Source: Mytilus galloprovincialis (Eukaryota > Mollusca > Bivalvia > Mytilida > Mytilidae). Taken from it: a stretch of DNA of 64,000 bases. The position numbers and the translations under genes were made by a program. Positions 20,068 through 47,000 of the stretch are shown here, in pieces. Positions within the stretch are counted from its first letter, which is position 1. Every line of letters begins with the position of its first letter. Where the stretch lies: the NCBI RefSeq assembly GCF_965363235.1, contig NC_134848.1, positions 59,420,181-59,484,180 of the forward strand. Reading direction: 5' to 3'. The notes under the pieces were generated by a model that was not told the origin of the DNA, made no database searches, and worked only from the letters and a program-made list of their open reading frames with translations.

Positions 20068-20083
20068 ATGGCGACCACAACAG
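20068..20083 (+). CDS. ACO1: Coding exon 1 of the iron regulatory protein gene (5 codons + 1 nt)
   Basis: ATGGCGACCACAACAG is followed by an intronic GT at 20084. Exon 2 opens with two bases that complete the codon, giving MATTTENPFQRL, where human IRP1 begins MSNPFAHL. The phase therefore fits exactly. The donor (CAG/gttttaaa) is weak beyond GT. The alternative, a start upstream of exon 2 at 23083, would read through the strong acceptor tttttcttcag and is less likely. Confidence 0.65.
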
Positions 20084-23000: not shown

Positions 23001-26000
23001 CTATTGAGATATAATCAAATTTAAGAAAAAATGAAAAGACTAAGAAAAGTCATTATTTTGTGATAGTTCATACTGCAGTTGTATGCAAAATCTAATTAAT
23101 ATCTTTGATAAGTTTATGTTCAAAATAAACTGTAAACCAACGAATGTTTATCATGTTTATCAGCGATTAATTTTGCGACTTCATGGATCAGAACAATATC
23201 CCAACTCAAAAGTGGTTTCAAGCCTGTCAAATAAATACATAACATATCCATATCGTTTAATTTTTTCTTCAGAAAACCCCTTCCAGCGTTTGGTGCAAAC
23301 AGCTAATATTGGAGGCAAAGACTACAAATTCTTCAATCTGTCAGCATTAAATGATCCGAGATATCGTGAGTATAATTTAATGTTGCAACAATATTACGTA
23401 CAATGACATAAAAAACCTTGAACATTTTATTTCTGTCATTGTCAGCACAGAGTTTGTAGTAGGTGAGTTTAGTGTTGCACCAAAGCCTCCATGATGTCTA
23501 TTGTAAGTAAGTCCTACAAGGTACGGAGGATTCATTTACAGGTATTTTCAAGACTAAAGAAAAAATGTATTTTCCTGTATATTTGGTCTCATGGTTTTGC
23601 TAAAATCTACATACAAACCTATAGCAAAATTATTCATCATGAAGATTTTAATTATAAGTTCACCAATAATCATGAAAATTGGTTTACCCCTAATAATTAT
23701 GAATCTGCAATATTATTAGACTAAAATGAGTGTATTTTTTAAGATAGTTAAAATGCATTGAATTTGAATTACAAACCTCAAAGACATTTTTGAAATACAC
23801 AAATGTATTGCATGTATTGTGTGTACTTAAAATTGAGAATCAAAATGCCTAATGTATCAAAGAGACAACAACACAACCAAAGAGCAGATAAGAACAGCCG
23901 AAGGCCACCAATGGGTCTTCAATAATGTATTCTGCTGTGAGATCAAAGTCTTAAACATGTTAAAGGGAGGAAGAGGTTACTGCATCAAAAGTTCTGTTCA
24001 ATTATGAAAGATATCCTTCAAATCAATTTCTGAATGTTCTGAGTTGAAGGAAACACTAATGTGATGATGATATTTAATTTCTTAAATTTTTCAGAAAAGC
24101 TTCCTTATTCCATCAGAGTACTACTGGAGTCAGCCATCAGGAACTGTGATGATTTCCAGGTACTACAGAAAGATGTGGAACATATTCTGGACTGGGAGAA
24201 AAATCAGACAAAAAATGTGGAAATTCCATTTAAACCAGCCAGGGTCATCTTACAGGATTTCACGTAAGTAAAGGAAGAATATGCAATGGTTCTACAAACA
24301 AAATTTCAGTTTCTAGTGGTCTAAGTAGCTCAGCTACAGTATCACTAGCCAGTCAACCCTGAGTCTGAGATTGTGAGTTGTAACCCTGCACCTGGAAGTT
24401 TGTTGTGGTTTACTTCAATCAGAATTGACTAGGATTGTCAGTTTTCTTGGTAAAGATTGGGGGTTTTCTGAACGGCAATCCAGCTTCGTCCACCAATATA
24501 AACTGACTGAGACGGTATAGGCCTAGAGTGTTGAAAGTATTGTCAACCACTAACAATAAATCTATATATCTGATATGAACCTCAAATTTCAAACATGTAC
24601 CACACATTCTTTAACAACTTAAAACAGACTTTGAAATGTAAAACCACTGAAAATTAATGACTCCACAGCACATTTATTTAAAATGATGAGTGGGAACCAT
24701 TCAATATTTTTAATGTAAAATTTGTTCATTATATTTACAGTGGTGTACCAGCAGTAGTTGATTTTGCTGCTATGAGAGATGCTGTGAAAAGGCTTGGAGG
24801 TGATCCACAGAAAATCAACCCAGTGTGTCCAGCTGACCTAGTTATTGACCACTCTATACAGGTGGATGTCTCAAGGAGGTATACATTTTATAATTAGGCT
24901 AGTACAGTCAATCAATATTTTATAATGCATAGTTACCCATCCCAAATATTCCTATCTATAAATATAACCAGTTTATCACCTATAGTTACAATATTCATCG
25001 TTTCAGAATCCAAAGGGTTTTGGGTAATTTCGTTGTTCGTAACCAATAATGTAAATAATGTCATTGTTTGAATTTCCATTGTTTAAGAGGTTTCTTAGGA
25101 GGTGAATTCATTTGAAAATATTACCAAAAATGCATAAGATTCTAAATCACTCTAAATTCAGCAATTATTGCGTGCATTTATTATTACGATTTTGTCATTT
25201 TAAACTAAAATGTGGTTTTAATTTTTGCTATATTGAGAAAAATCATTTTTCACAATAATAAAAACATTACAATATTAATAGTTTCTGAATTTACAGTACT
25301 TACTCAATTGAATTGCACCTTTGTCCTCATTACCATGATTACAGTACCGGTACTTTTTTGTAAAAAAAAAAAATGTATTTCCTTAAAAAAGTTTATTACT
25401 TGGTAAAATTTTAATTTCTGACTCAATGAAAAAAGGTGTTGTTCTGAAAAGTACATCTGTCAACATGAGAAAATTCTTTATGGAAGCAAGAATATCCAAA
25501 CATGTAGTTCAGATTAAGTATGCTATTGATCTAAGTTTGTGATATACATGATATAGTTCATTAATCAATTTGAAAGACTATAATACATTAAATTATAAGT
25601 TTTAATTGAGGTTCTGCTTCTAATTTTTGACAAGATTTGGTTGCATTTTGAACAAAAAATCATATTGAAGACAAAAAAACTTATGTTGATTATCATTGAT
25701 TATCTGAATTAAAATGGTCAAAATATGAAATTTTTTTTGTAAATCCAATTTTGTATTTTTTTCATTTCTGATTTAAATTCCCACCTGCACAGTTAACCAG
25801 TTCTTGCATGTTTTATCTCTTAATAAATTGTCCTATATAATGATTATTTCATGTAAATCAGGTGCTTGGGTAGGTGAGATTGTTTTGTCCATAAATGGAC
25901 AAATATATATTCCCCCCCCTTTTTTTTTCTTTTTTTAAAATATTCGTATACATGTATAGTCAGCTGCTGATAATAACTTTAAAAAAATGATCTCCTCATT

Positions 26001-29000
26001 TAATTCGCCCTCAGCAACTTAACAACCTAACATCTTCATTTGAAAAAAAATCAATTTGCTTAAAAGTGACCTTGTGATCTAAGGCAATTATTAAATGTGA
26101 CCTAAGGGGAGTAACCTAGTAGAGCCCCACATAGTAACATCACCTTAGGTAGACCCTCTTAGTGTCGTTACTAACTGTGATTAAGCCTTTTTTTTAAATT
26201 TGATCATGATCATCTAACACAGCTTTTTTAAATATATTTATGCCGATTTTTTGTAAAAACAATAATAAAAAAAAGCAAGACATTACAATTAGTATAATTA
26301 TGATGCTTAGTTTCTGAAACTCTTTAAAATATGATAAATTTATATCATGAATATTGAATATTGATATGCAGTATTGGAAAAATGTTGTGTATTAAATGAT
26401 TTTATAGGAGCTAAATAATCATGATAATATCAATAAATATTTAAGATTTTATTATGTGCGGATGTGAGTGAAAAAGAATTAATTTTGTAAAATTCAAGAT
26501 TTTTTTTCTCCTTACAGTACTTTGAGATTCTCCCCAAATCCTGGAGGAGGTCAGCCCAAATGTTTGAACTGTGAAGGTCCTTGCTCTGATAAAATTTGTC
26601 CATTTCATGGCCACAAAACATCTAGGTTGGTAGCCATAGTTACAAGGTGTTTGATTGTTGTTTTATTTTTTTTTCAATTTTCTTTTACATAATATTTAAT
26701 ATAATGTGGGGAAATATCTTCATAAAAGATAATAGTTTGGTATTCTTAATGCCAGGAAGATTTTTAAATAAATGTAGAGGAAAACTTCTGGCAATAGATT
26801 TATTTAGCTAAAGTTAGTAACAAAACTGCTATCAAAATACACAATTGTTTTAAATTTTTTTACTCAGAAGTATTCCATAATTCTGAAATTTTCTATCATC
26901 GTTGAAGATGTTTCCCCACTGTTTACATTGTATTCAGGCTTTCATTCTGATATTTGAAGTGATCATATGATATAGGAATTGGCCGTTCCAGAATCTAAAG
27001 CATCATGGGTAATTCCATTGTTCGTGCCCCAAAATGAAAATAACATCACATCATTGGTTAAATTTCCATTGGTTATGACATTTTTAACCAATCAGGACGT
27101 TTTGGTGTACGCTTTTGAAAATATTACCTAGGATGCAATAGATTCTGAAACGACGAATTGTCTTCCCATTGTTATGATAAACAGAATGTCTTTAAATCAC
27201 AATGACATTTATATATATATCTGTTTATGTCCTGCTTGATCTGGTAAAATTTATTTAGTAACATGAACTTAGACTTGGTCAAGTAGAAATTATGAATTTA
27301 TGATACATGTACATGTGTTTCTTCATAAGTCTAAACATGCTAAAAAGAAATAATATGCTGTTTGATGGGCTAATTTATTCCTTTTGCCTCTTACATCATG
27401 CAGTTTTTTCAAATTTATTGTCATTTCATTATTACTTCTTTGGTGTTCTTAAATTTTAACATCCTCTTTCAAGAAGTAAATTTTTTTTGATTAATTAAAC
27501 TTGTAAAACAAATTTTTTAATAAAAATATTTTAAAATGAAAAATGTTTAAACAATATTAAAAAATACCTTTTTTATCCACACTGTTAATTGGTAATAATT
27601 TAATTTTGGATGCAACGCTTCTTCGATTGGCTGACGTTATTTTGTTATTAGCCCATAGATATAATTTAGTCATGTGACCGTGACGTTTTTTCATGGTTTT
27701 CTATAGTTTAAAATGGAATTTAGAATTAAATTATAAGAAATGACTGTAATATTTTTTCTGTCTATTCGAAATAACATAAAAACTGTGGTGCACACTGTTA
27801 AATAACCCGCTACGCGCGTTATTCAGTGTGCACCAAATTTTTTATGTTATTTCTTCATAGACAGAAAAAATATTACAGTCATTCCTTAAATGTTTTTTTT
27901 TTTTATTTTTATTATTTATAACTTCCAATTTACAACATAATATACACAAATATAATAGCAATATATAATATATAAATCTATAGATATTATCTTATCAATG
28001 CATCTTTCTATTAGGAAGCAATTTTTTTTTTTTTTAAATATACAAATATAAGATAAAGAGTAAAGCAGTTTGAACACCGGAGAGAGAGAGATAGAAAGAG
28101 AAAGAGAGTGAGAGAGAATAGTGTGGTGAGTTTTCAATATAATTCATCTAGAAATTGAATTCTATTTTAGTATAGTAAATACAGCATTTTCATTTATAAC
28201 ATGTATATACATTTTTGTACTTAACTAAGCATGCTAAGTAATATATCAAAGGCATTCCATTCTCGGAGAAACTGATGTTCACATTGGTTTTTCATAGCAA
28301 TATTTTTGTCCATTGCATACACATATTTTATCTTTTCTTTTACTGAGTTTATTGTCAGTTTTTTTTTAAAACATCTGGAATTATAAATATATTGCTTTAT
28401 GGTAAGAAAAAGAGTATTTTCTGCATTGCCTTTTGATATTTTTGCAGTGTTACCAAACAAAAAAGCTTCTTTTGTAAAAAGTACACTAATTCCATTGGTT
28501 AGAAACCAATTTTCAATCTGTTCTAATAATAATTGTGTATGTTCACATTCCCAAAATAAATGTTCTAATGTTTCAATTTCTCTATTACAAAATGTACAAT
28601 TTGGATTATCATAAATCTTAATTTTTCCTTAAATGTTAATGAAATGTTGGTAATGTATGAAATGTCACCTTATTATGATCTATATTGACACCAATTTTGT
28701 TGCTTCATTACAGTGCTGATGCTTTAGAACAAAATCAGGAATTAGAATTTACAAGAAATAAAGAAAGATTTGTATTTTTGAAGGTTGGTAGAAATTTAAG
28801 GTTGTCAGGGGAACAGTAGTTGAGTTTAGATAAGAAAAAAATTAAGAAAAGAAATATGTTCATAAAGGAATGAAAAATTAACAAAACACTAGCAAATTAC
28901 TTTATTTGATAAACAAACAATTCCTTTCAAAGGATCATTTCTTTAATATATATGTACTATAAGTTCAGAAATTTTTGTATGCATATATTATTGGGATTGT

Positions 29001-32000
29001 GTCGCTTTTTTTACTGATGCGATATTTAGAAGAAAAAAAAATGTTCTATTTCTATTAAAAATTTAAAATGCGAGTTATGATTATTGTGATTATAACCCTG
29101 TCGCATTATTTCGCAATAAAAAAAAACATCGCTATAATTTCTGAATTTACAGTAAAAGTTTTATCAAGTATGGTCATGTGATATTTATATTTTTTATAGA
29201 ATATGCTGTTGCTCCATAATGTTTTGTGGAGTACCAACTCTCATGGATATAATTAAACCACAAATTTATAGATTTAAATGCTTACTTGTTTAAACAAGAA
29301 ATTAAGTATCCACGACAACACTAATCTTTCCAATTCTACAAAATTTGGTTCCATGAAATCAAACATGTTAAATGAATCCACAGATCAACTGCAATTTGCT
29401 AAATGTTCAGGTTTTTTTATGCCCCACCTACGATAGTAGAGGGGCATTATGTTTTCTGGTCTGTGCGTCCGTTCGTCCGTCCGTCTGTTCGTTCGTTCGT
29501 CCGTTCGTCCGTCTGTCCCGCTTTAGGTTAAAGTTTTTGGTCAAAGTAGTTTTTGATGAAGTTGAAGTCCAATCGACTTCAAACTTAGTTTACATGTTCC
29601 CTATGATATGATCTTTCTAATTTTAATGCCAAATTAGAGGGTTTACCCCAATTTCACGGTCCACTGAACATAGAAAATGATAGTGCGAGTGGGGCATTCA
29701 TGTACTGGGGACACATTCTTGTTTGCAAATATTTCATTCCTATCTAGAACAAGAACAAATGAAAAATAAATACTATAATACTGGTATGATTTTGCATGGT
29801 CAGTAAGTTATGACCGTTCTAAGGACAGTTTAAGTTATAGGAACCATTTGAAGAAGAATTTTTTATGGTTAAAGGTAGAAATGCTACGAGTCTTTTAAAG
29901 AAACAAGTGTTGTTATTGGAATCTACCAATTTTCATGCCCGACAAAGGTATGGAAAAAGCTAATAAACTGCCTTGTAAAAATGTAGTTATTAAATATCCA
30001 AGATGTTTTATTAGTCGAAATAATAAACATTGACACATGTGTGTTTGTCACTTACATAAACATGATAAAAGTATAATAAAATTGAGAATGGAAATGGGGA
30101 ATGTGCCAAAGAGACAACAACCCGACCATAGAAAAAAACAACAGCAGAAGGTCACCAACAGGTCTTCAATGTAGCGAAAAATTCCCGCACCCGGAGGCGT
30201 CCTTCAACTGGCCCCTAAACAAATATATACTAGTTCAGTGATAATGAACGCCATACTAATTTCCAAATTGTACACAAGAAACTAAAATTAAAATAATACA
30301 AGACTAACAAAGGCTAGAGGCTCCTGACTTGGGACAGGCGCAAAAATGTGGCGGGGTTAAACATGTTTGTTTTACTTTTCAGTGGGGAGCAAGAGCTTTG
30401 AAGAATATGTTGATTGTACCTCCAGGATCAGGGATAGTTCATCAGGTCAACTTAGAATTCCTTGCCAGAGTTGTATTTAATGATAATGGGACATTGTATC
30501 CAGACAGCTTAGTGGGAACTGATTCTCATACAACCATGATCAATGGTTTAGGAGTTGTTGGCTGGGGTAAGCAATTCCTTTTTAAATTGAATTTGAATTA
30601 GGCTGCGATGTTTCTATTAGAATAAGAATATATGGTATGATTGCCAATGAGACAACTCTCCACAAAATAACATAAGTCTGACAACTGTGACTATTGATTT
30701 CAAAGAATGAATGTGCAGTTTGGGGGGCACCAGATGGCAATGTTTGATTTTCATTTGTTTTAAATTTAGTCAAGGGGAAGTAGGAAGTCATGTAACATGC
30801 CAGTCTGAATGTACTTTCATCCTTTTGATTTGTATGCAGTCATAAAATATGTCAGTAAAACTGTACTATCAACTATTTTATTTTTATGCAATTATGCCAG
30901 TCTGATTATACATTCAGATCATTTTTTATGCATTCATGTATAATTAACTAGTCTAATTGTATGTTCATGGTTTTTATTTTTATGCAGTCATGCTAAGCCA
31001 TTTTTGTAGTTTTAAAGCCATTTTATTTTGTAGGTGTTGGAGGGATTGAGGCAGAAGCTGTTATGTTAGGCCAGTCCATTAGTATGGTGCTTCCTCAAGT
31101 TGTTGGTTACAAATTGACCGGAGAAGTTGACCAAATGACCACATCAACCGATGTTGTCTTAACAATAACAAAGGTAAAATGTTCAAACAAAATGGCGGAT
31201 GACACCACTTGATGAGAATGCCTACATGAAACAAAAATATGTTAGAAACAGAGGGACTCATATAATGCATTTTATAAGAAAAGTAAAGGGCCCAAATGGT
31301 GTATCGTCTTATCTTATGTCTACTAGTGTTACAGAAGGTGTGTATCTGCCTTCCTGTTTTGTGATCTGTGTTAGCAGTCACTACGCAAAGAACATTTTTA
31401 TGTTTATGCTTTAAAATATTTTTCCAAAAACTGAATTTTTAATGCTAGAAAACTTATTCCATGCATCAGTAAAATAAGGAGCAATAAAACTTTTAAAAAA
31501 ATCTTTTTATAATAATATTATTTTAATAAGAGTATTTATAGCAAATGTCTGCTTCTCAATATTTTGTATTTTGATACCATTATTTTTGAAACTTTCAGGT
31601 TTAAATGATACATGCATATGGTTGAGATCCACAAAACATGTATGCCCTCCCCACATTTGATCAAAAGAATGTTGTCTTTTTTTTTAGCACTTAAGGCAGA
31701 TTGGTGTGGTTGGAAAGTTTGTTGAATTCTTTGGACCTGGTGTTTCTAAGCTTTCCATTGCTGACAGAGCCACGATCTCAAACATGTGTCCAGAATATGG
31801 TGCTACTGTAGGATACTTCCCTATTGATAATAAAAGTCTGGAATATTTATTACAAACAGGTTAGTTTTACATTTATATTATTATACCCCCGCTTTAAAAA
31901 AGGGGGGGTATACTGTTTTACCTCTGTCTGTCAGTCCGTCCGTCCGTCCGTCAGTCAGTCCGTCAGTCAGTCCGTCAGTCAGTCCGTCCCATGAAACTTT

Positions 32001-35000
32001 CGTCACATTTTTCTCAGGAACTACACATCCACCCTTTCTGTAATTTGGTATCAACATTTATATATGTTAGCCATACCGTGTGATGCGTTTTCAGATTCAT
32101 CACTTGACAACTTCCTGTTTACCGAACACTTGTATGATTTTACACATGATAGCCAAGTTGAAAATTTTCGTCACATTTTTCTCAGGAACTACACATCCAC
32201 CCTTTCTGTAATTTGGTATCAACATTTATATATGTTAGCCATACCGTGTGATGCGTTTTCAGATTCATCACTTGACAACTTCCTGTTTACCGAACACTTG
32301 TATGATTTTACACATGATAGCCAAGTTGAAAATTTTCGTCACATTTTTCTCAGCAACTACAATACAAAGATTTCTGAAATTTGGTTTCAGGATTTATACA
32401 AGTCAGCTATACCGTGTGATGCGTTTTCAGATTCATCACTCGACAACTTCCTGTTTACCGAACACTTGTATGATTTTACACATGATAGCCAAGTTGAAAA
32501 TTTTCGTCACATTTTTCTCAGAAACTACAATACAAGGATTTCTGAAATTTGGTTTCAGGATTTATATAAGTCAGCTATACCGTGTGATGCGTTTTCAGAT
32601 TCATCATTCGACAACTTCCTGTTTACCGAACACTTGCATATTTTTACACTATCAATATTATCCACTTGCGGCGGGGGTATCATCAGTGAGCAGTAGCTCG
32701 CAGTTTCACTTGTTATGAATTAGAATTCACAAAAACTTTTGAAACCTACAATTATACATTTTTAAATCCTTTGAGAGCATCAAAACCAAAAAGTCTCCAA
32801 ATAGAAAGGCAAAAACTGTCTTAAGACCAACTTTGCTAGAGGCAGCTGCAACCAATAGTTTATAAAAGCACAATTACTGTAAAAATTGTTAATTCAGAAA
32901 ATTCACAATGGACAAAAATACAGGCTCAGTGATATCCTAAAAAGTACACACATTGACACAAACAGAGCATGAAAGATTTAAATGCTGCTTTTTCATTTTG
33001 CAATACCTTTACAGTTTCAATTTTTACTAATGATAAATAAAAGTAAAGTTTATGACACTAAATATATGTTAATTTATCCTGTCAGGGAGAAGCAATGAAC
33101 AGATCCAGTTTATAGAGCAATATCTACGATCTATTACTATGTTCAGAAACTATAATGATCAAAATGAAGATCCTGTGTTCTCAGAGGTATTACATTAAAT
33201 TAATAAGTAGCACAAATCTACCCCCTTTAGAACTTGGAAAAGAGAGGCGAAAAATACCAGAGGAACATTTAAACTCATAATTTGAAAATAAACTGTCAAC
33301 ATCATGGCTAAAAAAGAAAAAGACAAACAGACAAACAACAGTACATAGAGTCAACTCATATTTACTTGAAAACAAGTTTTGAAATTTTTCTTTTCTTTTT
33401 TATTTTATGAATATGTTGTGCATTATTTAGTGCAATATTTTTATATTATACGACAACTACCATAATTTTACAATTTATTTTTTTTGCACACATATTATTT
33501 ATATTTGATATGTGGAAAGGAAATGATATTTTTATACCCCCGCTTTAAAAAAGGGGGGGTATACTGTTTTACCTCTGTCTGTCCGTCCGTCAGTCCGTCC
33601 ATCAGTCCGTCCATCAGTCCGTCAGTCCGTCCGTCAGTCAGTCCGTCCCATGAAACTTTCGTCACATTTTTCTCAGGAACTACACATCCACCCTTTCTGT
33701 AATTTGGTATCAACATTTATATATGTCAGCCATACCGTGTGATGCGTTTTCAGATTCATCACTTGACAACTTCCTGTTTACCGAACACTTGTCTGATTTT
33801 ACACATGATAGCCAAGTTGAAAATTTTCGTCACATTTTTCTCAGGAACTACAATACAAGGATTTCTGAAATTTGGTTTCAGGATTTGTGTAAGTCAGCTA
33901 TACCGTGTGATGTGTTTTCAGATTCATCACTCGACAACTTCCTGTTTACCGAACACTTGTATGATTTTACACATGATAGCCAAGTTGAAAATTTCCGTCA
34001 CATTTTTCTCAGGAACTACAATACAAGGATTTCTGAAATTTGGTTTCAGGATTTATATAAGTCAGCTATACCGTGTGATGCGTTTTCAGATTCATCACTC
34101 GACAACTTCCTGTTTACCGAACACTTGTATGATTTTACACATGATAGCCAAGTTGAAAATTTTCGTCACATTTTTCTCAGGAACTACAATACAAGGATTT
34201 CTGAAATTTGGTTTCAGGATTTATGTAAGTCAGCTATACCGTGTGATGCGTTTTCAGATTCATCACTCGACAACTTCCTGTTTACCGAACACTTGTATGA
34301 TTTTACACATGATAGCCAAGTTGAAAATTTTCGTCACATTTTTCTCAGGAACTACAATACAAGGATTTCTGAAATTTGGTTTCAGGATTTATATAAGTCA
34401 GCTATACCGTGTGATGCGTTTTCAGATTCATCACTCGACAACTTCCTGTTTACCGAACACTTGTATGATTTTACACATGATAGCCAAGTTGAAAATTTTC
34501 GTCACATTTTTCTCAGGAACTACAATACAAGGATTTCTGAAATTTGGTTTCAGGATTTTTATAAGTCAGCTATACCGTGTGATGCGTTTTCAGATTCATC
34601 ACTCGACAACTTCCTGTTTACCGAACACTTGCATATTTTTACACTATTAATATTATCCACTTGCGGCGGGGGTATCATCAGTGAGCAGTAGCTCGCAGTT
34701 TCACTTGTTGGGACTATTTTTACAGGTACACTGACGTAGAACTCACGATTCTATATTAATATTTTTAATACAATTTTCAACTTTAAAAAATATATATATA
34801 TAGCTGAAATTTAAAAAAAAATACATTAGTTAAAAGATCATTAAATGTATAATCTATTGGTGTTTTTTTTTAAAGATATATGAACTAGACTTGTCAACAG
34901 TGAGGGCCTGCTGTTCTGGACCAAAGAGACCTCAGGATAAAGTGGCTGTCACAGACATGAAGTCTGATTTTACACAATGTCTCAACAATAAAGTTAGCTT

Positions 35001-38000
35001 TAAGGTAAAATCAACAGAACAAGAGTTAGTGTGATGAAATATTTACAAGTCATATTTAGTTTCCTTGTAGGGTCTTAGAAGGGGCAGATAAATCTATGCT
35101 GTCTTCTTTGGTCATGTGTCACAACCTTGAATTATGCATTAAAATTGACAGTGAAATGTTTTTGTAGGATTAATTTCATGGTTGAATGCCTTCTGTGAAC
35201 ATAGCAATTAATAAGACCAACACGAAAAAAATCCTGATATATGGTATAGCAGAAAAGAGAACATGTGTATAAACTTAACCAAATGACCTAGCAGACAAGA
35301 TAATTGTTAAAAAAAAAAAAGATTTTGAAAAAAACATAAGATGATATCCTGGAAAGAAAAAAAAACAGTGCTAAAGACTACAAAGATTTCAGCATGACTA
35401 TGTTTCTTACAAAAAAATAATCAGCAAATTTAGCCTGATATCACGGAAGAAAGTCTTAGCAACAGATGTAGCACTTGTATCTTGTATCGTTTTATTATTT
35501 ATAGATTTTCTTTTGATCCTAATGTCTTTTTCCTGACCTCAGTTTTATATGTGAACTCATAAACAATTGATTGATTGTTGTTAAAATACTAAACCATCAG
35601 TGGAAAATATTTTATATAAAATTAAGAAGGTGTGGTTTGATTGCCAATGAGTCAAAAAAATATCTAGATACGTAAAAACATTTAATGGAATATGCTTTTA
35701 AAATTTGAGTTCACACGTAAATAAAAACTCAACCGTGAAAACTGTAAGGAGTGAAAATTGTTACTAGTACAAAACACATTACACGAGGATATATAGGTCA
35801 CCATAGGGCTTTCAACAATGAGCAAATCCTGTACCGCAAAATCAGCTATAAAAGACCCTGATATGCATATTCTAGAGGAAATATTTTATGTATCAGGTTT
35901 TAAAGATATGTATTAGGTTATGCCATGTCTAAGTTTAATACTAAATAATAAATATGAAAATCAAACAATTTGATAATTTGATAACTGTTTGAAACATGTA
36001 TCTTCATTGAGACGATGACCTAAAAAAAAAGTTTTTTGTTTCAGGGCTTTGCAATACCGTCAGATAAACAATCCACTACTGTACCAATTGTTTTTGAAAA
36101 CAAAGAGTACACATTGTCACATGGTTCTGTTGTCATAGCAGCCATCACTAGTTGTACAAATACCAGTAATCCATCAGTCATGTTAGGAGCAGGTGAGTAA
36201 CCTCCCTTTGTAGAGAATATATATAAATGTTCGACATGGTCAGACAACAAAGTTATTTCTACAAAAGAATAAGCATAACATGCCAATGGGACAAAATACA
36301 TTTATTTCTTTTTTTGTGACAAGCAAGATTCACCTGTATTTGTGTTGTCTAGATACATCTAGTGTTTCAAGTGCATGAAGTTTCTCAAGCAATTTCTACA
36401 TTCAAAGTGAAATCCTAAGTACATAGCAATAAGCAGAAAAACACAACCTAGATTTAAAATTGATTGATTGATTGGTGTTAACTGGCACTTTCAACGTTAT
36501 TGTGCTGTTTTTGTGCGATCTGTTTTAATTGATGTAGGAAGCTGGAGTGCCAACAGAGAACCACAACCTTTTGAATGAAAACTGACAATCCTAGTCAATT
36601 AGAGAAATTAAAAATTTGGAGTGGAAATGCACCTTCCAAATTCAAGATTCAAACTCACAACCTCTGTCTGGCCACTAAGGCCCTACATATATCTATAATG
36701 TATTTTGTCTGTTCTTGGTTTTAATGAAAAAAGATATGTTCTAGATATATTTGTTTTATTTTATTTTTAGGACTTCTAGCAAAGAATGCAATAGAAGCAG
36801 GACTGTCTGTGAAGCCATACATCAAAACTAGTCTGTCACCTGGCAGTGGTGTTGTGACCTTTTACCTCAGAGATAGTGGTGTAACTCCATATCTGGAAAA
36901 ACTAGGGTGAGTACACAAATGAGTCTGTCCTCTGATATGTGTCTCATTGGCAGTCATCACTTTCAATCAAAACAGGTTCTACTGCTATGAAAAATAAAAG
37001 ATAGACTATTAACAAATTTGCTACAAAAGATATCTGAAAAATTTAATATCAGATATAGTCATATACAGGTATTGTGTATTTCAGGAGAATAAGGACGTAA
37101 GCAATTATAGGTCAATGTACAGTCTGCAACAATGACCAAAACCAATTCCTTATAGTCAGCTATAAAAGGCCCTACAATTACAAAATATTAAATTGTTTAA
37201 ATGAGAAAAACCAACAGCTTGATAATTCTAGCTTGTTAATTACACAAGGAAAATGTTGGTTTTTTTTTTTTGTCATATAAATTTTTGTCTAAACTTTACT
37301 GTTTTCTAGAAATTAGGTATCATTTTCATCAATTAAGAACTAACTCTGCATGCTTTTAAAGTTTGACACAAAATGGTTTATACTTATGTTACCGAAAACA
37401 TACCAAAAATAAGTGGATATGGTATAATTGCCAATGAGACAAATATCCACCATAGACCTGCATGTTAACCATACATCCTTAAACAGTTTTTATCAAACAT
37501 GATACATCATTGCCTAGTATAAAACAATGACACAATGTACTAATTATTTGTATTTTAGGTTTTCAGTGGTAGGTTATGGTTGTATGACTTGTATTGGTAA
37601 CAGTGGACCATTACCAGAACAGGTTGGGGAAGCCATAGAGAAGGTTAGTTCAACTGTATCTGTATCAGTATCTCTCTACTTTGTTGTCATCTCTCAGTCT
37701 ATCTTTCACTAAGAAGATAACCTTGGAAAAGGGACAAAATCCCAGACCTATGAAGTCAAATTTTCCGGTTTTTTTTAAAACTATTATTTTTTTTTATGCC
37801 CCACCTACGATAGTAGAGGGGCATTATGTTTTCTGGTCTGTGCGTCCGTTGGTCCGTCCGTCTGTCTGTCTGTTCGTTCGTCCGTCTGTCCCGCTTAAGG
37901 TTAAATTTTTTGGTCAAGGTAGTTTTTGATGAAGCTGAAGTCCAATCAACTTCAAACTTAGCATACATGTTCCTTATGATATGATCTTTCTAATTTTACA

Positions 38001-41000
38001 GCCGAATTAAACTTTTGACCCCAATTTCACGGTCCACTGAACATAGAAAATGAAAGTGTGAGTTTCAGGTTAAAGTTTTTGGTCAAGGTAGTTTCTGATG
38101 AAGCTGAAGTCCAATCAACTTGAAACTTAGTACACATGTTCCTTATGAAATGATCTTTCTAATTTTACAGTCAAGTTAAATTGTTGACCCCAATTTCACG
38201 GTCCACTAAACATAGAAAATGAAAGTGTGAGTTTCAGGTTAAAGTTTTTGGTCAAGGTAGTTTTTGATGAAGTTGAAGTCCAATCAACTTGAAACTTAGT
38301 ACACATGTTCCCTATGGTGTGATCTTTATAATTTAATGCCAAATTAGATTTTTTACCCAATTTCACGGTCCATTGAACATGTAAAATAATAATGCGGGTG
38401 GGGCATCCGTGTACTTTGGACACATTCTTGTTTTAATTTATGTTTCTTTTTTCATCCCTTCAGCATTTCACATACTTATTTATTGGAGAAATTGTTGTAT
38501 AGTTTCTCAACTGTTCTAGAAAACTCATTAGTGTATCAAATTATTGTTTTGACATTGTATTGGATGAGATCAAGAAAACTAATCTGTTTAAAATAATTTT
38601 TTTACATTTTTCAGGGAGATTTGGTGACATGTGGTGTCCTCTCAGGTAACAGGAACTTTGAAGGGAGAATCCATCCACTGACAAGAGCTAATTATTTAGC
38701 CTCACCTCCATTAGTAATAGCATATGCATTAGCTGGAACTGTTCTTATAGACTTCGAAACAGAACCTCTAGGTATGTCATAAACAGGGAATAACAATAGT
38801 GAGAAACTCAAATCTTTGTAAATTAAGAGTGCAATTAAAATTTGATGGGTGATTTTAGAAAGATAACCAGAAAACTTATAGGAAATAATCAATTAAATGT
38901 TTATGTGGGATTTTTTTTCAGATTTCTTTAATTTTATTGTTCATGTTTATCTCTAGCTGAATTTATGTCCATTACCATGATTATTCTCTAATCTTTATAT
39001 TTAGTCCAAATTATTCTCAATTCTTTTCTTTTTTTTTTACTATTTTTCTTGATTGTTTTTATGTTTTTTGACATTTATTTTGCAATTTTCCCACACTTTT
39101 CTCTAAACTCTATCCACACTTTTGTTTATACATGTTTTTCAATGTCAGTGTGAAGAAAGATTATATATTTCATAAATTGATATATTTATTGCAGGAACAA
39201 ATTCTGAAGGCAAACCCATATTTTTGCAAGATATCTGGCCAACAAGGAGTCAGATACAGGAAGTAGAAAAGGCAGTAGTGGTGCCATCTATGTTTAATGA
39301 TGTATATTCTAGAATACAGGTAAATAACAACTGCAAAAACAAAAACTTCAAACCTAGGAATATATACTTTCCAAACTTCCAATGAAGCATTGTCTTACCC
39401 CAAAAAATGTAAAAAACCAAAATAAAAAAACAGTGATTGATAAATAAAAAATTTCATAGCTGTGTGAAATGCATTTAAATGGGCATTGGTATTTTATGTG
39501 GGATAATTTTGGTAGTAAAATGTCTTCAGTGAACATCCTTAAAATAGAAACACAAGTCAAAACACCCTGACATTTGCATTTGTTCTTCTTTAAGTTACTC
39601 ATTCTCAAATAGACCAAATTGTTACCTTATTTTCTACTTATTTTGAATTTTGAGCTTGAATGTCGGTTTGGTATCTTTCGTCTCTCTTTTATATAATACA
39701 TATGAGCTATATATAAATTTGACCTCTTAACCCATTAAGAACCTTGTACATAGTTTGTAAATTTATTCATTTTATTATTACAGAAAGGGAACACCAGATG
39801 GAATAGTCTAGAGGCTCCCGAGGGGATGATTTATCCATGGGATGATAAATCTACCTATATCAAATCACCACCGTTCTTTGAAACAATGGTAAGTCAGTTA
39901 CTAAATAACTATTTCTAAATCTAATGCATTCTGGGTAAATCTGGGTGGATCAATTTATGACCTATACTCACAGTACCTCAATTTTCATCAATGTACTAGA
40001 TAAGTATACCTTCGTTTTAAAAAGGGGGGTATACTGTTTTACCTCTGTGTCCATCCATCCTTCCGTCACTCCGTCCATCCCATGAATATTTTTTGTAGCA
40101 TTTTTCTCTGCATACAAGGATTTCTGAAATTTGGTTTCAGGGTTTATATAAGCCTGCTTTACCGTTTGATGCGTTTTCAGATTCATCACTTGACAACTTC
40201 CTGTTTACCTAACGCTTGTATGATTTTACACATGATAGCGAAGTTGAAAATTTTCGTCACATTTTTCTCGGGAACTACAATTCAAGAATTTCTGAAATAT
40301 GGTTTCAGGGTTCATATAAGTCAGCTATACTGTGTGATGCGTTTTGAGGTTCATCACTGGACAACTTCATGCTTACCGAACACTTGTATGATTCACATGA
40401 TAGCCAAGTTGAAAATTTTCATCACATTTTTCTCAGGAACTACAATACAAGGATTTCTGAAATTTGGTTTCAGGGTTTATATAAGTCAGCTATACTGTGT
40501 GATGCATTTTCAGAGTCATCACTCGACAACTTCATGTTTACCGAACACTTGCAAATTTTACAATATTAATATTATCCACTTGCGGCGGGGGTATCATCAG
40601 TGAGCAGTAGTTCGCAGTTTCACTTGTTTCATCTAGGAGATAATATTTTATGTATGGTTTATTTTGTTGTAAAATGTTGTAAGCGATTTTGCAGACTACA
40701 CGAAATACGTCGGACCGTCGGACAAATCCGGTGAATAATGGATTGGTCTGGTAAAATTTTGTTGAATTCCGGTCCGAATGTCCGGTGTTTTTTTTTCATG
40801 GAACATTCTAGCAAAATTGCCAATCGATCTCAAATTCATTTTCATCTTTATTATTCATCACAGCGATGTTTATTTTATTCAACCGCTAGCTTTATGCCGA
40901 ACATCGACAACCAGTAATGTGTAAATCCGGGTAAAAACATATCTGACTGTCAAAAACAACAATGGATGCCATCATTGGCACAACCGGAAATGTAAATAAA

Positions 41001-44000
41001 ACCGGATCAGATTCTGGGAACGGATAAGGATAATTCCGGGTTTGCCGATTTAAATACAATAAATGAATAAAAATCCAAGCAGATCACAAATTTTGGCTAT
41101 GAAATATAACCACAAGAATTGAAAACCAAAAGATATATGAAAAAGAAAGAAGAAACAGGAAATAATATTTTATACAGAAACTCTAAATTATGTTTAGCTC
41201 ACAAACATTGTCAAAATCCAATAAAATGGGACATTACTTTTCACTGAAATGCATTCAAGCAATTGTGCACAACTTTCATAACAATATCCCCTCTTGTTAC
41301 ATCATTTTGTTTTAATTTGTGCAATTTGTGGAGGAGTAGGGCACAACAAAGTCATATGTTTGTTGTTTTTTGTCGGATAATATACAATTAGATGTAAAAA
41401 AAAAATTGGTCTGGTAAAATTTCATTCGGTCCGAATGTCCTGTAATAATAAAATTCATTCGCGTAGTCTGTGATTTTGTTGATGATTGACTATGGGTTCT
41501 TTGGATGAATGATTTATTTATATAATACAGATACATTTTGTACTTCAATTTCATTGGCATGTTTTAAAACCACCATACTTTTTTCAGCCAAAATTGATTT
41601 TTTTCCCTAATTGGTAAAATACTTGTACACAATGATATATTTCCATCTGATTGGCAAGAAAATATTTCTTTTAAATTACAGGGGAAAGATCTTCCTGTAG
41701 TTGAAGGTGTAAAGGATGCTTGTGTTCTATTAAATTTTGGTGATTCTGTCACAACAGACCATATCTCGCCTGCTGGTAGTATAGCTAGGAACAGTCCAGC
41801 TGCCAGATACCTAGGATCGAAAGGGTTAGTAATGTTACAGATCTAAAGGTAAATGTAGCTGTAAAATGACTGTTGACTCATTATACCACTAAATAAGACA
41901 ATAAATAAATTATACGTAATACTGAAATGATGTGAGTTTGTGGTCGAGTGGTTAAGACTGCTGGCTACATTGCTGAAGGTCCCAGTTCGATTCTCACTTG
42001 GGGTGCAAAAATATCAGTACATCAGAAGGGTAATTTTCACTCTCTCACAAACATCTCTGGTATCCAGACCAGAGTTTAAACAAGAATGATACTTTGGGGT
42101 CTTGGTTGGTTTGACCTGGAGATCAATCTGCTGATATTTGTCTGGTTTGTCTGTTTCCACCGAGTGACCCGGTGGTTTTCTCCAAGCACTATGGCTTCCT
42201 CCTCCATAATAACAGATACTGCCTGGTTCCTTAACACTCCCTGGTGTAGGTTGGGGCATATTTTCTATCTTAGGAATATTATTGAATGTTAGACACCTTG
42301 AAACTGAATTATAAGAATATATAGTAGGGTACAATCTCCAATCATCTGAACCTAGAATTATGAAATTTAAAAATATTTGTATATGATTTGATTATTGTTT
42401 GTTTTTCTTCTTCAGATTAACAGCTAGAGAATTCAATTCCTACGGTTCCAGGCGTGGTAATGATGATGTTATGGCCAGAGGGACATTTGCAAATATTAGA
42501 TTAGTTAATAAATTTGTTGGTAAACCTGGAGCTAGGACAGTCCATTTACCATCAGGACAAGAGGTAAATAAACATACACATAAATAAGTTCAAGCTGTTC
42601 CAGAAAAAAAGTTACATTATTCTTTGGGGCACTGTTAGTCCTTGTCAACAGTAGAAATTTTAAAATAAAATGATAATGCGTTTTATGCCCCCAATATAGC
42701 AGAGGGTCATTAAGTTTTACTCTTGTCTGTGTGTACATCCGTCAGTATGTCCTGAAATTGGGTTCTTTTCTCCAACTTATGTTTGTCTCAACTAATTGTT
42801 ATGAATACACAATGCTGATTACCACAAAACATAGATCAAGTTCTATTTTTGGTGGTATCTCTTTTATTGTTCTTGAGTTATGCACCTTTACATATGGAAA
42901 TTATAGCTGCATTTTATGTTTTCATTTTCTTATTTAAGTTTGCCTCAACCAAATGTTAATAAACTTATACACAATGCTTACTTTCACAAAACTCATCAAG
43001 TATGAATTTGGATTGCATCACTCTTACTATCTTGAGTTATTTCCCTTTATAAAGTTATATGGTCACATGGACACAGTCCCTATATATTTAACATCTGATT
43101 AGCAATAAAGTATGGCTTAGGAACATGTAAATCTTAGATCTTCTCTTATTTTTATACCCCCGCTTTAAAAAAGGGGGGGTATACTGTTTTACCTCTGTCT
43201 GTCAGTCCGTCCGTCCGTCCGTCCATCAGTCCGTCAGTCCGTCAGTCCGTCAGTCAGTCCGTCCCATGAAACTTTCGTCACATTTTTCTCAGGAACTACA
43301 CATCCACCCTTTCTGTAATTTGGTATCAACATTTATATATGTCAGCCATACCGTGTGATGCGTTTTCAGATTCATCACTTGACAACTTCCTGTTTACCGA
43401 ACACTTGTCTGATTTTACACATGATAGCCAAGTTGAAAATTTTCGTCACATTTTTCTCAGGAACTACAATACAAGGATTTCTGAAATTTGGTTTCAGGAT
43501 TTATATAAGTCAGCTATACCGTGTGATGCGTTTTCAGATTCATCACTCGACAACTTCCTGTTTACCGAACACTTGTATGATTTTACACATGATAGCCAAG
43601 TTGAAAATTTTCGTCACATTTTTCTCAGGAACTACAATACAAGGATTTCTGAAATTTGGTTTCAGGATTTATATAAGTCAGCTATACCGTGTGATGCGTT
43701 TTCAGATTCATCACTCGACAACTTCCTGTTTACCGAACACTTGTATGATTTTACACATGATAACCAAGTAAAAAATTTTCGTCACATTTTTCTCAGGAAC
43801 TACAATACAAGGATTTCTGAAATTTGGTTTCAGGATTTTTATAAGTCAGCTATACCGTGTGATGCATTTTCAGATTCATCACTCGACAACTTCCTGTTTA
43901 CCGAACACTTGCATATTTTTACACTATTAATATTATCCACTTGCGGCGGGGGTATCATCAGTGAGCAGTAGCTCGCAGTTTCACTTGTTTTTTCTGGCCT

Positions 44001-47000
44001 TAGAAAATTGTGTAGAAAAGTTTCACAATTTTATTTATGTATTCTTACTTGACTTGTAGAATAAAACTTGAGGTAAAGGTGTAATACCACCATTGATTTT
44101 CTACTATTAGTCTTTGTTAAATTGGCACTTTTAAAAAAATTGTACAGTATTTACCTTTATTTCAACCAAAGAAATACTTTGCATGTATAAAGTTTAATTC
44201 TTTCCAGTGCTAAAATAAAAAAAATCACACTACATTTCATTGCATATAAAAAAGTAGCCATCACCGGAAGTAAACAACCCAATTTTTACACTGTTATTTA
44301 CTGGTTACCTACTTTGGTAACTATGTAACCTTAACTTTCCAAAATATTTTAAAGACCATCAAATCAAGAAGGAATGATGCTTTCAGACACCCAACATACA
44401 TGTTTATTTAAGTGCATTGAAATGCAGGGTTAATTTTCTACAACTGTCAAATTCAAGGGAATATTTTTTTAGACCTACTTTTGTATACAACCGGATGTGA
44501 CGTACCATGATTTGGTGATATTACACCTAAATGTCTTTGTATAGAAACATAAGTCAAAATGTTTTTTTTATGATGTTTTTTTTTCTGTACAAAATTTGGT
44601 GACCATTTATTGTTCCTTATGATAGTGACTACTCATATTGTTTCTTAATATAAGTACTGAACCTCATTTTTTGTTGGGGTTTGTGTTGCCCAGTTTTCTA
44701 AGTTAAGTTTTGTATAAGATTATTCGTCCAAATGGGTTTTTTTTTCTTCAGTTTTGCCATGACGTCTTTTCTTTTTTAAACTTGTTATTTGTACCTTTCT
44801 TATCTTTTTCCTCTTTTTTTTTCATTATTAATGAAATGTTTTGATACATGTTTTCAAATAAAGTGATTTGTATCAACATACTATTTTCAGATGGACATCT
44901 TTGATGCAGCTCAAAGATACAAGACTGAAAATAAAACTGTGATAATTTTGGCGGGAAAAGAATATGGTTCAGGATCGTCCAGAGACTGGGCAGCCAAAGG
45001 TCCATGGATTCTCGTAAGTGTAACAGTAACGTTGATTTAGGAAAAGTCTGTTTATATTGAAGCATGGATTCAAGGATTTGATTAATTCTGCAAATATGTA
45101 TACATGAACTTGTATCTTGCTACACATCAACCATTTTTTCAACATAAGTGCATCAAACCGACTAAAAACAAAAAAAAACATGAATATATTAAATCCACAG
45201 TAATTGTTATTTTATTTGAAGGCAAAATATAAAGCAAAACTATACCTAGGCCACACCAATTTAATTTCTTGTTCTGCGGATTTTTGGACTCCAAAAATTG
45301 GGGCGAGCAAGCGATTTGAAAATTTTAATAAAAAAATATTTATTTAGCAAATTTTTGAGGCGAAGCTTGAAAAGTAAAGGCGAGCGATTATATTTTTTTT
45401 TTTGTAAACATAAAATAGTAGGTTTTGACAATATTAAAACTTGATTTATCACTTGTACTTTGACATTTCTTTAATTTATGAAGTATCTTTCCCTGTTCAC
45501 CAATAAATAATTGAATAATTAGATTTGGTATATGTATGTGTGCCAATTAATGAGACAATTCTCCATCCAAGTCATAATCAGGTTGGGAACAACCCCTCAG
45601 TTTTATAAATATCCTTTTTATGAGGGGCCAATACAGAGATGCAAACAGTTTTTTTTTTCCTGTCAGACAATGGGGCCTACAGGGTACCAAGTTTTGCCAG
45701 ACCCATCAAATTTCTGCCAGACCCATATTTTCACTCAAAAATCAAATGAAATTATGCTATTGAACAAACGTTAATTTTGATTTTGTTGATATTATTATTA
45801 TTTTAAAATAACCTGTGATTCATAACAATTGTAGTTTATTGAATAATACATTACATAATATTGATCTGATTAAAAGTTATTCTTCACAAGAGTACTTGGA
45901 AACAAGATAGTCATTGGTAGTTTCATTCTGTTCAAATTCAAAATCTGACTCATAGTCGTACAAAGACCGCTTTACAGCTTTATCAACTTGAATAGGTGAC
46001 TGGTTTGGTCTTTTACCGGGTTTCGACCCACTTACAAATTTTATCGGCCATGACATATTTCCTGAACTTATCAACTATGCTTAATAGACCTCCTTCCTAG
46101 AGAGCGAATTTCTAAAACAAAAAACATGACGGAAATACGGAGAATTGTTCGGGGCGAGATGGACAAGGTACGAAAGACTATTACTGGGCGGAAATACTGG
46201 TTCCCGGAGTTAGAAAATGCGGGGGAACAGGACATTTACTTTTATTAAAGATGATCGCAATTTTATAAACAAAATACTCTGCCGGGGCCGACGGGGATTT
46301 CAGTTTTGGCGGACCCAAGCGGACTTAAATATTGCCGGCCATCAGGTCCTGCACAGCTACGAGTTTTGCCGGACCTGCATAAATTCTGCCCCTTAGGTCC
46401 GACGGGTCCAACGATTAGTTGCATCTCTGCAATATAAGTTACAATATATTATTTTGTAAATAAAACTTTTTAGTACAAAAGAGCTCATATTTTCCCAAAG
46501 AACTATATATCTATCTGGTATTAAATGGTCAAAACATGCCCAAGAATTTTGTAATATTCCTTGGACTTAGGCCATGTTAACACATTTACTTTAATATTAT
46601 TCAAAATAAATAATATCATAAATAATTCTCTTTAAGAATATAGTAATGTTGTTTAAAATTATTTAAATATGATGTATTTCTCCTCTCATTTAGTTAATTT
46701 TTTTAAGTTCTTCAAAGGATTTGTATAGTAACACTATGCAAATCCTTGGTATTTCTTCAAGTTTCTTTTTTACAACAGTAAAATGACCCCATATGTGCCC
46801 TTCTGAGGGATAATAGCAAATACAGGTCATCTGGTCATAGTACGTATGGCAGAGCTTTGACCCAGACCAAACAGCAAGCTATAAGGGACCCCAAAAATAT
46901 ATGTACACAATTCGAACAGGAAAACCAACGATCTAATTTATATATATACAAACGGGAAAATACCAAATAATATTTATGAACATCAACAAACGATATCTAA

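What the first reader, a model, noticed from the sequence alone, without database searches (positions are those of the whole stretch)
26518..26625. Invertebrate IRP1-like gene carries the IRP2 cysteine-rich insert with its heme motif
Exon 5 encodes PNPGGG, then C-x2-C-x3-C-x4-C-P-F-H, between VDVSR and [12 protein letters not shown]. Human IRP2 has its 73-residue iron-dependent degradation insert at exactly this point. It opens near PNPGGG, holds Cys168/174/178 (CRGSC; mussel CEGPC) and closes with Cys201-Pro-Phe-His204, reported as a heme regulatory motif. I recalled the human sequence from memory, and the residue numbers agree with the published cysteine positions. The rest of the mussel protein is IRP1-like with all three cluster cysteines. 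This implies the insert predates the vertebrate IRP1/IRP2 split and was lost from IRP1, or was kept in molluscs as a combined aconitase/IRP2-type sensor.
Basis: partly seen in the sequence, partly recalled or inferred. Interest (0 to 1): 0.92.

Follow-up and report, generated by a model that had tools for sequence, protein, structure and literature searches.

The report
IRP2 insert in a mussel IRP1
A mussel's only cytosolic iron-sensor gene carries, as a skippable exon, the small protein segment that in vertebrates marks the second iron regulatory protein, and the same segment turns up from corals to lampreys, so it is far older than the vertebrate gene pair and was probably once switched in and out by splicing.

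Summary
Window 26518-26625 is coding exon 5 of 22 in a Mytilus cytosolic aconitase/IRP1 gene (928 aa), the only such locus found in the 1.38 Gb assembly. Its 36 residues (PNPGGG ... CPFH) sit exactly where human IRP1 has nothing and human IRP2 has its 73-residue insert. Of 104 relatives retrieved, 47 carry an insert with CP[F/Y]H at this point: molluscs, an annelid, arthropods, echinoderms, amphioxus, lamprey and cnidarians. Insert length varies about 28-441 residues, yet CPxH always lies 19 residues before the RNxER helix, in human IRP2 too. In Nematostella and Amphiura, annotated isoforms differ only by this segment, so it looks like an alternatively spliced cassette. Trees place the vertebrate IRP1/IRP2 duplication after the split from invertebrates, so the insert predates it and IRP1 lost it. 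The mussel protein is not an IRP2 orthologue. Function (heme/redox loop through CPxH) is inferred, not shown. Ten searches of an open-access library listed no paper making this link.

The parts
26518..26625 (+). Coding exon 5: the IRP2-type insert, 36 residues (139-174, the first and the residue after the last split by introns), phase 2-2, skippable in frame
   Evidence: Sequence and splice sites; homology at both ends to human IRP2; 47 relatives
26534..26551 (+). PNPGGG (residues 145-150), left motif of the insert
   Evidence: PGG in 42 of 47 inserts, PNPGGG in 30 of 47; human IRP2 143-148, counted on the sequence
26561..26584 (+). C-x2-C-x3-C (residues 154, 157, 161), cysteine cluster of the insert
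   Evidence: C-x2-C in 36 of 47; C-x2-C-x3-C in 4 of 47
26597..26608 (+). CPFH (residues 166-169), the motif that in human IRP2 is Cys201-His204
   Evidence: C, P and H in 47 of 47 rows (which were chosen by CP[FY]H), 19 residues before RNxER in 47 of 47 and in human IRP2
20068..20083 (+). Coding exon 1 (MATTT plus the first base of the next codon)
   Evidence: Pattern from the P0001 N-terminus plus GT, 0 mismatches; 0.17 matches expected with up to 2 mismatches, 16 of 100 shuffles have one; model of 928 aa
24741..24878 (+). Exon 4, ends VDVSR (AG of the split codon); holds [10 protein letters not shown], named an RNA-binding segment in PMC8947174
28714..28783 (+). Exon 6, starts [13 protein letters not shown]; follows exon 5 or exon 4 in the same frame
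   Evidence: skip model of 892 aa without internal stops
23273..48586 (+). Span of exons 2-22 of the cytosolic aconitase/IRP1 gene (exon list in the Full report section)
   Evidence: All introns GT-AG; TIGR01341 AcnA 1314.5 bits; one locus in the assembly

Best explanation
Exon 5 is a homologue of the vertebrate IRP2 insert, retained in the single, IRP1-type (aconitase-competent by sequence) iron regulatory protein of a mussel. It encodes an optional, probably disordered loop set between two segments named as RNA-binding. Ancestrally one animal IRP gene made two proteins by including or skipping this cassette: an insert-free IRP1-like form and an insert-bearing form. After the vertebrate duplication the insert was fixed in IRP2 and lost from IRP1. 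Mechanism I think most likely: the CPxH motif, held at a fixed distance from the folded core, is the working part and acts as a heme- or redox-responsive site that tunes stability or RNA binding of the insert-bearing form, the variable stretch between PNPGGG and CPxH being a tether. Shown here: homology, position, distribution, fixed spacing, annotated isoform pairs in two relatives, gene tree, one locus in the assembly. Inferred: inclusion and skipping in the mussel itself, heme/redox role, effect on the protein. My confidence is about 0.93 for homology, 0.85 for an ancient cassette, 0.35 for the heme/redox role.
For: Exact exon with symmetric phase. Both ends align to the human IRP2 insert and human IRP1 lacks it. 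The insert-only profile ranks human IRP2 first of 177,635 PDB sequences, though with E 0.26; human insert above 19,999 of 20,000 shuffles. 47 of 104 relatives carry CP[FY]H inserts: 14 mollusc, 1 annelid, 20 arthropod, 6 echinoderm, 1 amphioxus, 1 lamprey, 2 cnidarian, 2 unnamed. CPxH-to-RNxER spacing 19 in 47 of 47 and in human IRP2, against insert lengths of about 28-441. Amphiura X3/X4 and Nematostella X1/X2 identical (139/139 and 754/754; 138/138 and 754/754) apart from clean 51- and 28-residue insertions. Tree: vertebrate IRP1+IRP2 100/100; IRP2+molluscs rejected, p-AU 7e-6; all insert bearers as one clade rejected, p-AU 1.4e-4. All 21 matches of P0001 in the 1.38 Gb assembly lie on this locus. 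The ark-clam recombinant IRP1, from a 942-aa cDNA with a segment Ser138-Gly189 absent from vertebrate IRP1s, binds the ferritin IRE in gel shift, and knock-down of the gene raises ferritin protein (PMC8947174).
Against: The insert-only match to human IRP2 is not significant as a blind database search (E 0.26); the lamprey insert alone is weak (639 of 20,000 shuffles reach it). The 47 were defined by having CP[FY]H and came from searches aimed at the insert, so 47 of 104 is no frequency and the presence of the motif in all is partly by construction (the spacing is not); the crab P0098 has the left motif but no CPxH, and the snail model P0094 has only the left half. An insert-free lamprey protein (P0052) falls weakly (80/65) on the IRP2 side of the vertebrate clade, so loss is not confined to IRP1. 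Isoforms are annotation models, not read counts, and no mussel transcript was examined; P0019 (M. edulis, no insert) is a poor model. 10 of 47 have no C-x2,3-C pair, which speaks against a conserved multi-cysteine metal site. [quoted passage not shown]
Confidence: 0.75

Rival explanations
1. The insert is homologous to that of IRP2 but is a tolerated, nearly neutral disordered loop; the isoforms are splicing noise.
For: AlphaFold gives residues 130-171 and 173-176 pLDDT under 50 (several conserved active-site loops score as low, so this is weak); the length varies about 28-441 residues; deletion of the human insert leaves iron-dependent decay intact (PMC2267205, PMC2854138; passages).
Against: C, P and H of CPxH with a fixed spacing of 19 in 47 of 47 rows and in human, from cnidarians to vertebrates, and PGG in 42 of 47, are hard to keep without selection; deletion of the human insert abolished the tumour-growth effect of IRP2 (PMC2854138).
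Confidence: 0.17
2. The insert is the iron-dependent degradation domain: iron binding or oxidation at the cysteines marks the mussel protein for proteasomal decay.
For: Models for human C168/C174/C178 (iron) and C168 or C201 (heme) described in PMC2267205; the mussel insert has four cysteines.
Against: Several laboratories found the cysteines and the whole insert dispensable in cells, though one opposing report exists (PMC2267205, PMC2854138); the cysteine pair is missing in 10 of 47 inserts, both cnidarians included. No hemerythrin-domain (FBXL5-type) match was found in the assembly, but that exon-by-exon search is weak.
Confidence: 0.06
3. The mussel gene is an IRP2 orthologue that kept the insert from an old IRP1/IRP2 pair.
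For: Shared insert.
Against: 68.9% identity to human IRP1 against 59.3% to IRP2 outside the insert; IRP2+molluscs rejected, p-AU 7e-6; one IRP locus found; IRP1-type active-site segments NRNFEGR and GSGSSRDW where IRP2 has NKNFEGR and GSGNSRDW.
Confidence: 0.01
4. Independent gains: unrelated exons landed at one intron and converged on PGGG and CPFH.
For: The middle of the insert cannot be aligned with confidence between phyla; blind-search E 0.26; the lamprey insert alone scores no better than 639 of 20,000 shuffles.
Against: Same junction, same order of motifs, same 19-residue spacing, and shuffles of human, Porites, Nematostella and tick inserts reach the real score in only 1, 1, 22 and 0 of 20,000.
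Confidence: 0.02

Closest known systems
Vertebrate IRP2 (IREB2) and its 73-residue insert
   Same: Same junction in the protein, PNPGGG near the start, cysteine cluster, CPFH 19 residues before the RNxER helix.
   Different: 36 instead of 73 residues; sits in an IRP1-type protein with IRP1-type active-site segments; not an IRP2 orthologue; optional in annotated isoforms of two relatives.
Vertebrate IRP1 / cytosolic aconitase (ACO1)
   Same: 68.9% identity to human IRP1 outside the insert, three cluster cysteines, AcnA equivalog match.
   Different: Human and rabbit IRP1 lack the insert.
Ark clam SbIRP-1 (PMC8947174; passages, section 3.1)
   Same: Bivalve IRP1 with an extra segment Ser138-Gly189 noted as absent from vertebrate IRP1s; it has the 52-residue length of the insert of the ark clam Tegillarca P0004; binds the ferritin IRE.
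   Different: What I read of the paper does not connect the segment with IRP2; its discussion says IRP2 is missing from the ark clam genome.
Heme regulatory motifs (CP motifs) of ALAS1, PER2 and IRP2
   Same: Cys-Pro with a nearby His, as in the HRM list that includes human IRP2 in PMC3904948 (passages).
   Different: Heme binding of the mussel protein is untested.

Membership tests
IRP1 / cytosolic aconitase | Full-length AcnA-type aconitase sequence | tested here: met
   TIGR01341 1314.5 bits, cut-off 945
IRP1 / cytosolic aconitase | Three 4Fe-4S cysteines | tested here: met
   SCTNTS and CMTC motifs aligned to human IRP1
IRP1 / cytosolic aconitase | No insert after the DHSxQV segment | tested here: not met
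   36-residue exon 5; an in-frame skip form of 892 aa is possible but not shown in the mussel
IRP1 / cytosolic aconitase | Binds IREs when the cluster is lost | not testable with these tools
   IRE binding shown for ark clam IRP1 by gel shift in PMC8947174, not for this protein
Vertebrate IRP2 | Orthology to vertebrate IRP2 | tested here: not met
   p-AU 7e-6 against IRP2+molluscs; vertebrate IRP1+IRP2 one clade 100/100
Vertebrate IRP2 | Insert homologous to the 73-residue insert | tested here: met
Vertebrate IRP2 | Changed aconitase active site (human IRP2: NKNFEGR, GSGNSRDW) | tested here: not met
   Mussel has the IRP1-type NRNFEGR and GSGSSRDW
Vertebrate IRP2 | Iron-dependent ubiquitination by FBXL5 | not testable with these tools
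   A hemerythrin search of the assembly found nothing, which proves little for a split, divergent domain; the FBXL5 search did not complete
Heme regulatory (CP) motif protein | Cys-Pro dipeptide with a candidate axial His | tested here: met
   CPFH, residues 166-169; C, P, H in 47 of 47
Heme regulatory (CP) motif protein | Binds heme with a functional consequence | not testable with these tools
   Needs protein
Alternatively spliced cassette exon | Symmetric phase, so skipping keeps frame | tested here: met
   Phase 2-2; the skip gives 892 aa with no internal stop; six other internal exons are also multiples of three
Alternatively spliced cassette exon | Transcripts with and without it from one gene | tested here: inconclusive
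   Met at the level of annotated isoforms in Amphiura and Nematostella; no Mytilus transcripts seen

The most novel reading that the evidence does not exclude
In the common ancestor of cnidarians and bilaterians one IRP gene already made two iron sensors by splicing a CPxH heme/redox loop in or out. Vertebrate IRP1 and IRP2 are those two splice forms frozen into two genes after duplication, and animals such as mussels still choose between them at the RNA level.
Probability: 0.5. Interest if true: 0.85.

Novelty: new variant of a known kind. Interest (0 to 1): 0.72.

Why it matters
In the passages seen, the IRP2 insert is described as unique to IRP2 (PMC2854138, PMC2267205) and of largely unknown function (PMC2854138). 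Finding it in single-gene animals from cnidarians to molluscs, and optional in two of them, changes its age, would explain the IRP1/IRP2 pair as an old splice choice split between two genes, and gives a direct handle on function: the part kept unchanged is CPxH at a fixed distance from the core (with PGG at the other end), while the C168/C174/C178-type cysteines are not universal. One can now compare insert-plus and insert-minus forms of the same protein in animals without a second IRP.

Tried and rejected
IRP2 orthology of the mussel gene: rejected by tree and identity. Convergence: judged very unlikely from position, spacing and shuffles. IRE in the window: no Rfam match at gathering score and no IRE family among the 14 weak matches up to E 5; the IRE family search of the assembly rang in no control and scored only 82 of 517,879 candidates, so it says nothing. 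FBXL5: the hemerythrin family search was negative but weak for intron-split domains (it rings in 7 of 14 control genomes); the search with a C-terminal FBXL5 piece did not complete. Splice-site strength: the exon 5 donor GTTGGT is off consensus, but exon 6 has the same donor, so it proves nothing. A residue-by-residue match of mussel CEGPC to human CRGSC: left open, C-x2-C-x3-C in 4 of 47. 22 of 104 proteins were set aside as 'other' before the 47/35 count: 19 vertebrate IRP1-like models with unrelated extra stretches at the same junction, P0050 (anchor not found), P0094 (partial insert) and P0098 (insert without CPxH). Those 19 look like intron read-through and suggest that vertebrate IRP1 still has an intron at this point; this is inferred, since no vertebrate DNA was read. 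Literature: ten searches (two searches returned nothing, the lists were cut at 15 of 18, 10 of 538 and 12 of 290) listed no paper that, by title, start of abstract or the passages I looked at in six papers, links an invertebrate IRP to the IRP2 insert. The library is open-access PMC only; a look-up by a DOI that I recalled as Piccinelli and Samuelsson 2007 was not held, and the review PMC4056636 was not seen because my look-up failed.
Full report
OBSERVATION. The window holds a Mytilus cytosolic aconitase/IRP1 gene on the + strand. Its 22 coding exons are 20068-20083, 23273-23365, 24095-24263, 24741-24878, 26518-26625, 28714-28783, 30383-30566, 31034-31173, 31688-31859, 33086-33186, 34876-35004, 36045-36192, 36771-36906, 37559-37643, 38615-38771, 39195-39319, 39784-39888, 41682-41824, 42416-42563, 44891-45013, 47756-47941 and 48476-48586. 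All introns are GT-AG. The product is 928 aa and agrees with the M. californianus protein P0001 at 910 of 928 positions. It is an AcnA equivalog (1314.5 bits, cut-off 945). In the 1,384,861,812-base assembly all 21 matches of P0001 fall on this locus (best candidates only); the Pfam aconitase model also finds a second place on contig C9, presumably the mitochondrial enzyme (identity not tested).

Both its ends are phase 2, so leaving it out joins VDVSR-S-ADALEQ in frame and gives an 892-aa protein without internal stops. Six other internal exons are also multiples of three, so symmetry alone is weak evidence for skipping.

IS IT THE IRP2 INSERT? In phmmer the mussel protein aligns to human IRP1 as two blocks that abut in IRP1 (ending at 133, starting at 134) and leave out the exon. 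Against human IRP2 the first block runs on through PNPGGG and the second starts just before CPFH. A profile of 19 invertebrate inserts alone (PNPGGG, then C-x2-C, then LPxLDxxCPFH) ranks human IRP2 first among 177,635 PDB sequences, over its residues 139-207. Its E-value of 0.26 is not significant as a blind search, and short matches to tau and a catalase follow close behind. For the narrower question, shuffled versions of each held-out insert were scored: 1 of 20,000 reached the real score for human IRP2, 1 for Porites, 22 for Nematostella, 0 for a tick, but 639 for lamprey. With the shared position this makes homology close to certain for human and good for the cnidarians; the lamprey insert rests on position and on LCPFHLQPLP, which resembles human LCPFHLQPVP.

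DISTRIBUTION. Three region searches, aimed at the insert and so not a census, returned 104 proteins. 47 carry a CP[FY]H insert at this junction, 35 carry none, 22 were set aside. By the names the 47 are 14 molluscs, 20 arthropods (chelicerates and crustaceans), 6 echinoderms, 2 cnidarians, 1 annelid, 1 amphioxus, 1 lamprey and 2 unnamed. The five named insects returned (Phaedon, Timema, Vespa, Fopius, Melitaea) lack it, as do human, rabbit and Ascaphus IRP1. The insert length is about 28 to 441 residues. CPxH is followed by exactly 19 residues before RNxER in 47 of 47, and in human IRP2. PGG occurs in 42 of 47, C-x2,3-C in 37 of 47; both cnidarians have DPGG...CPFH without the cysteine pair. 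Across the 104 proteins CP[FY]H occurs nowhere else (47 occurrences in 98,514 residues). Because the 47 were defined by CP[FY]H, its presence in all is partly circular; the fixed spacing is not. Exceptions: crab P0098 has the PGGG and CxxC part but no CPxH, and P0094 (Batillaria) ends half-way. No sponge, ctenophore, placozoan or choanoflagellate name appears in the three lists, but these groups were not searched for specifically.

ISOFORMS. Amphiura filiformis X3 and X4 are identical at 139 of 139 residues before and 754 of 754 after a clean 51-residue insertion; Nematostella vectensis X1 and X2 at 138 of 138 and 754 of 754 around a clean 28-residue insertion. These are database models of one gene with the cassette in or out, at the junction of mussel exon 5. 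Several further 'isoform X2' entries lack the insert (Mercenaria, Dreissena, Physella, Argopecten, Mya, Pecten), but their partners were not retrieved.

TREE. With the insert columns removed, vertebrate IRP1 and IRP2 form one clade (100/100), the insert-bearing lamprey protein joins human IRP2 (100/98), and all invertebrates in the set lie outside (LG+G4, 34 and 21 rows). Holding IRP2 with molluscs costs 122 log units (p-AU 7e-6); holding all insert bearers together costs 83 (p-AU 1.4e-4); these groups were named after the quick tree had been seen. The deep order of the animal groups is unresolved. An insert-free lamprey protein (P0052) falls weakly (80/65) on the IRP2 side and is unplaced, so absence of the insert is not confined to IRP1. 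The simplest reading is that the insert is older than the vertebrate duplication and was lost in IRP1. Only two IRP2 sequences, human and lamprey, were available.

HOW IT PROBABLY WORKS. The protein keeps the cluster cysteines and IRP1-type active-site segments, so it should be a working aconitase/IRE switch. AlphaFold2 (39-row alignment, mean pLDDT 77.8) leaves residues 130-171 and 173-176 under 50, as expected for a disordered loop, but several conserved loops (for example 540-549) score as low, so this is weak evidence. The loop follows [10 protein letters not shown] and precedes [12 protein letters not shown], both named RNA-binding segments in the ark clam paper (section 3.1 read). In the ark clam, recombinant IRP1 from a cDNA with a Ser138-Gly189 segment absent from vertebrate IRP1s binds the ferritin IRE, and knock-down raises ferritin protein (and passages), so the insert, if that segment is it, does not block RNA binding. 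The constant element is CPxH; in human IRP2 its cysteine, C201, is one of two proposed heme sites, the other being C168 (PMC2267205, passages). I therefore favour a heme- or redox-responsive site on a tether, present only in the inclusion form. Against it: in mammalian cells the insert is dispensable for iron-dependent decay, heme binding was seen only in a cleaved form, and the one effect assigned to the insert in the passages seen is on tumour growth (PMC2854138). The mechanism stays a hypothesis at about 0.35.

LITERATURE AND NOVELTY. Ten searches listed no paper that identifies the IRP2 insert in invertebrates or describes it as a spliced cassette, as far as listings and passages show; some lists were cut. 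The ark clam paper saw the segment but, in what I read, not the link; the razor clam paper (PMC12896564, passages) does not mention it in the passages seen; nor does the chiton genome paper (PMC7850002, passages); PMC3904948 (passages) surveys heme motifs in heme-synthesis enzymes. Subscription papers could not be searched. I rate this a new variant of a known kind.

Noticed in passing
window 31994-32649, 33653-34644, 40112-40562, 43269-43924: Arrays of a 165-168-base tandem repeat (2.7-5.9 copies, 86-96% matches) inside four introns of the IRP gene, each of the three 168-base arrays preceded by a GTCC-type microsatellite. One array is open as a 345-codon frame with matches to four unrelated Pfam families, which I take to be spurious.
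   Followed up: partly
window 11811-12572 (-): Mitochondrial carrier family protein (PF00153, E 1.7e-29) in one long open frame, on the opposite strand upstream of the IRP gene.
   Followed up: no
window 28221-28628 (-): Open frame with a zf-RVT match (E 8e-5, 23.6 bits against a cut-off of 27.5), probably a decayed retroelement in the intron between exons 5 and 6.
   Followed up: no
P0082-P0090, P0093, P0095-P0097, P0099-P0104 (vertebrate IRP1-like models): 19 vertebrate IRP1-like database models carry unrelated extra stretches at exactly the insert junction, as if an intron there had been read through; a possible footprint of the lost cassette.
   Followed up: partly
P0014, P0016, P0017, P0064, P0066-P0070, P0072, P0073, P0075, P0076: In crustaceans (and the sea slug Elysia, P0016) the insert has grown to about 170-440 residues, while CPFH keeps its place.
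   Followed up: partly
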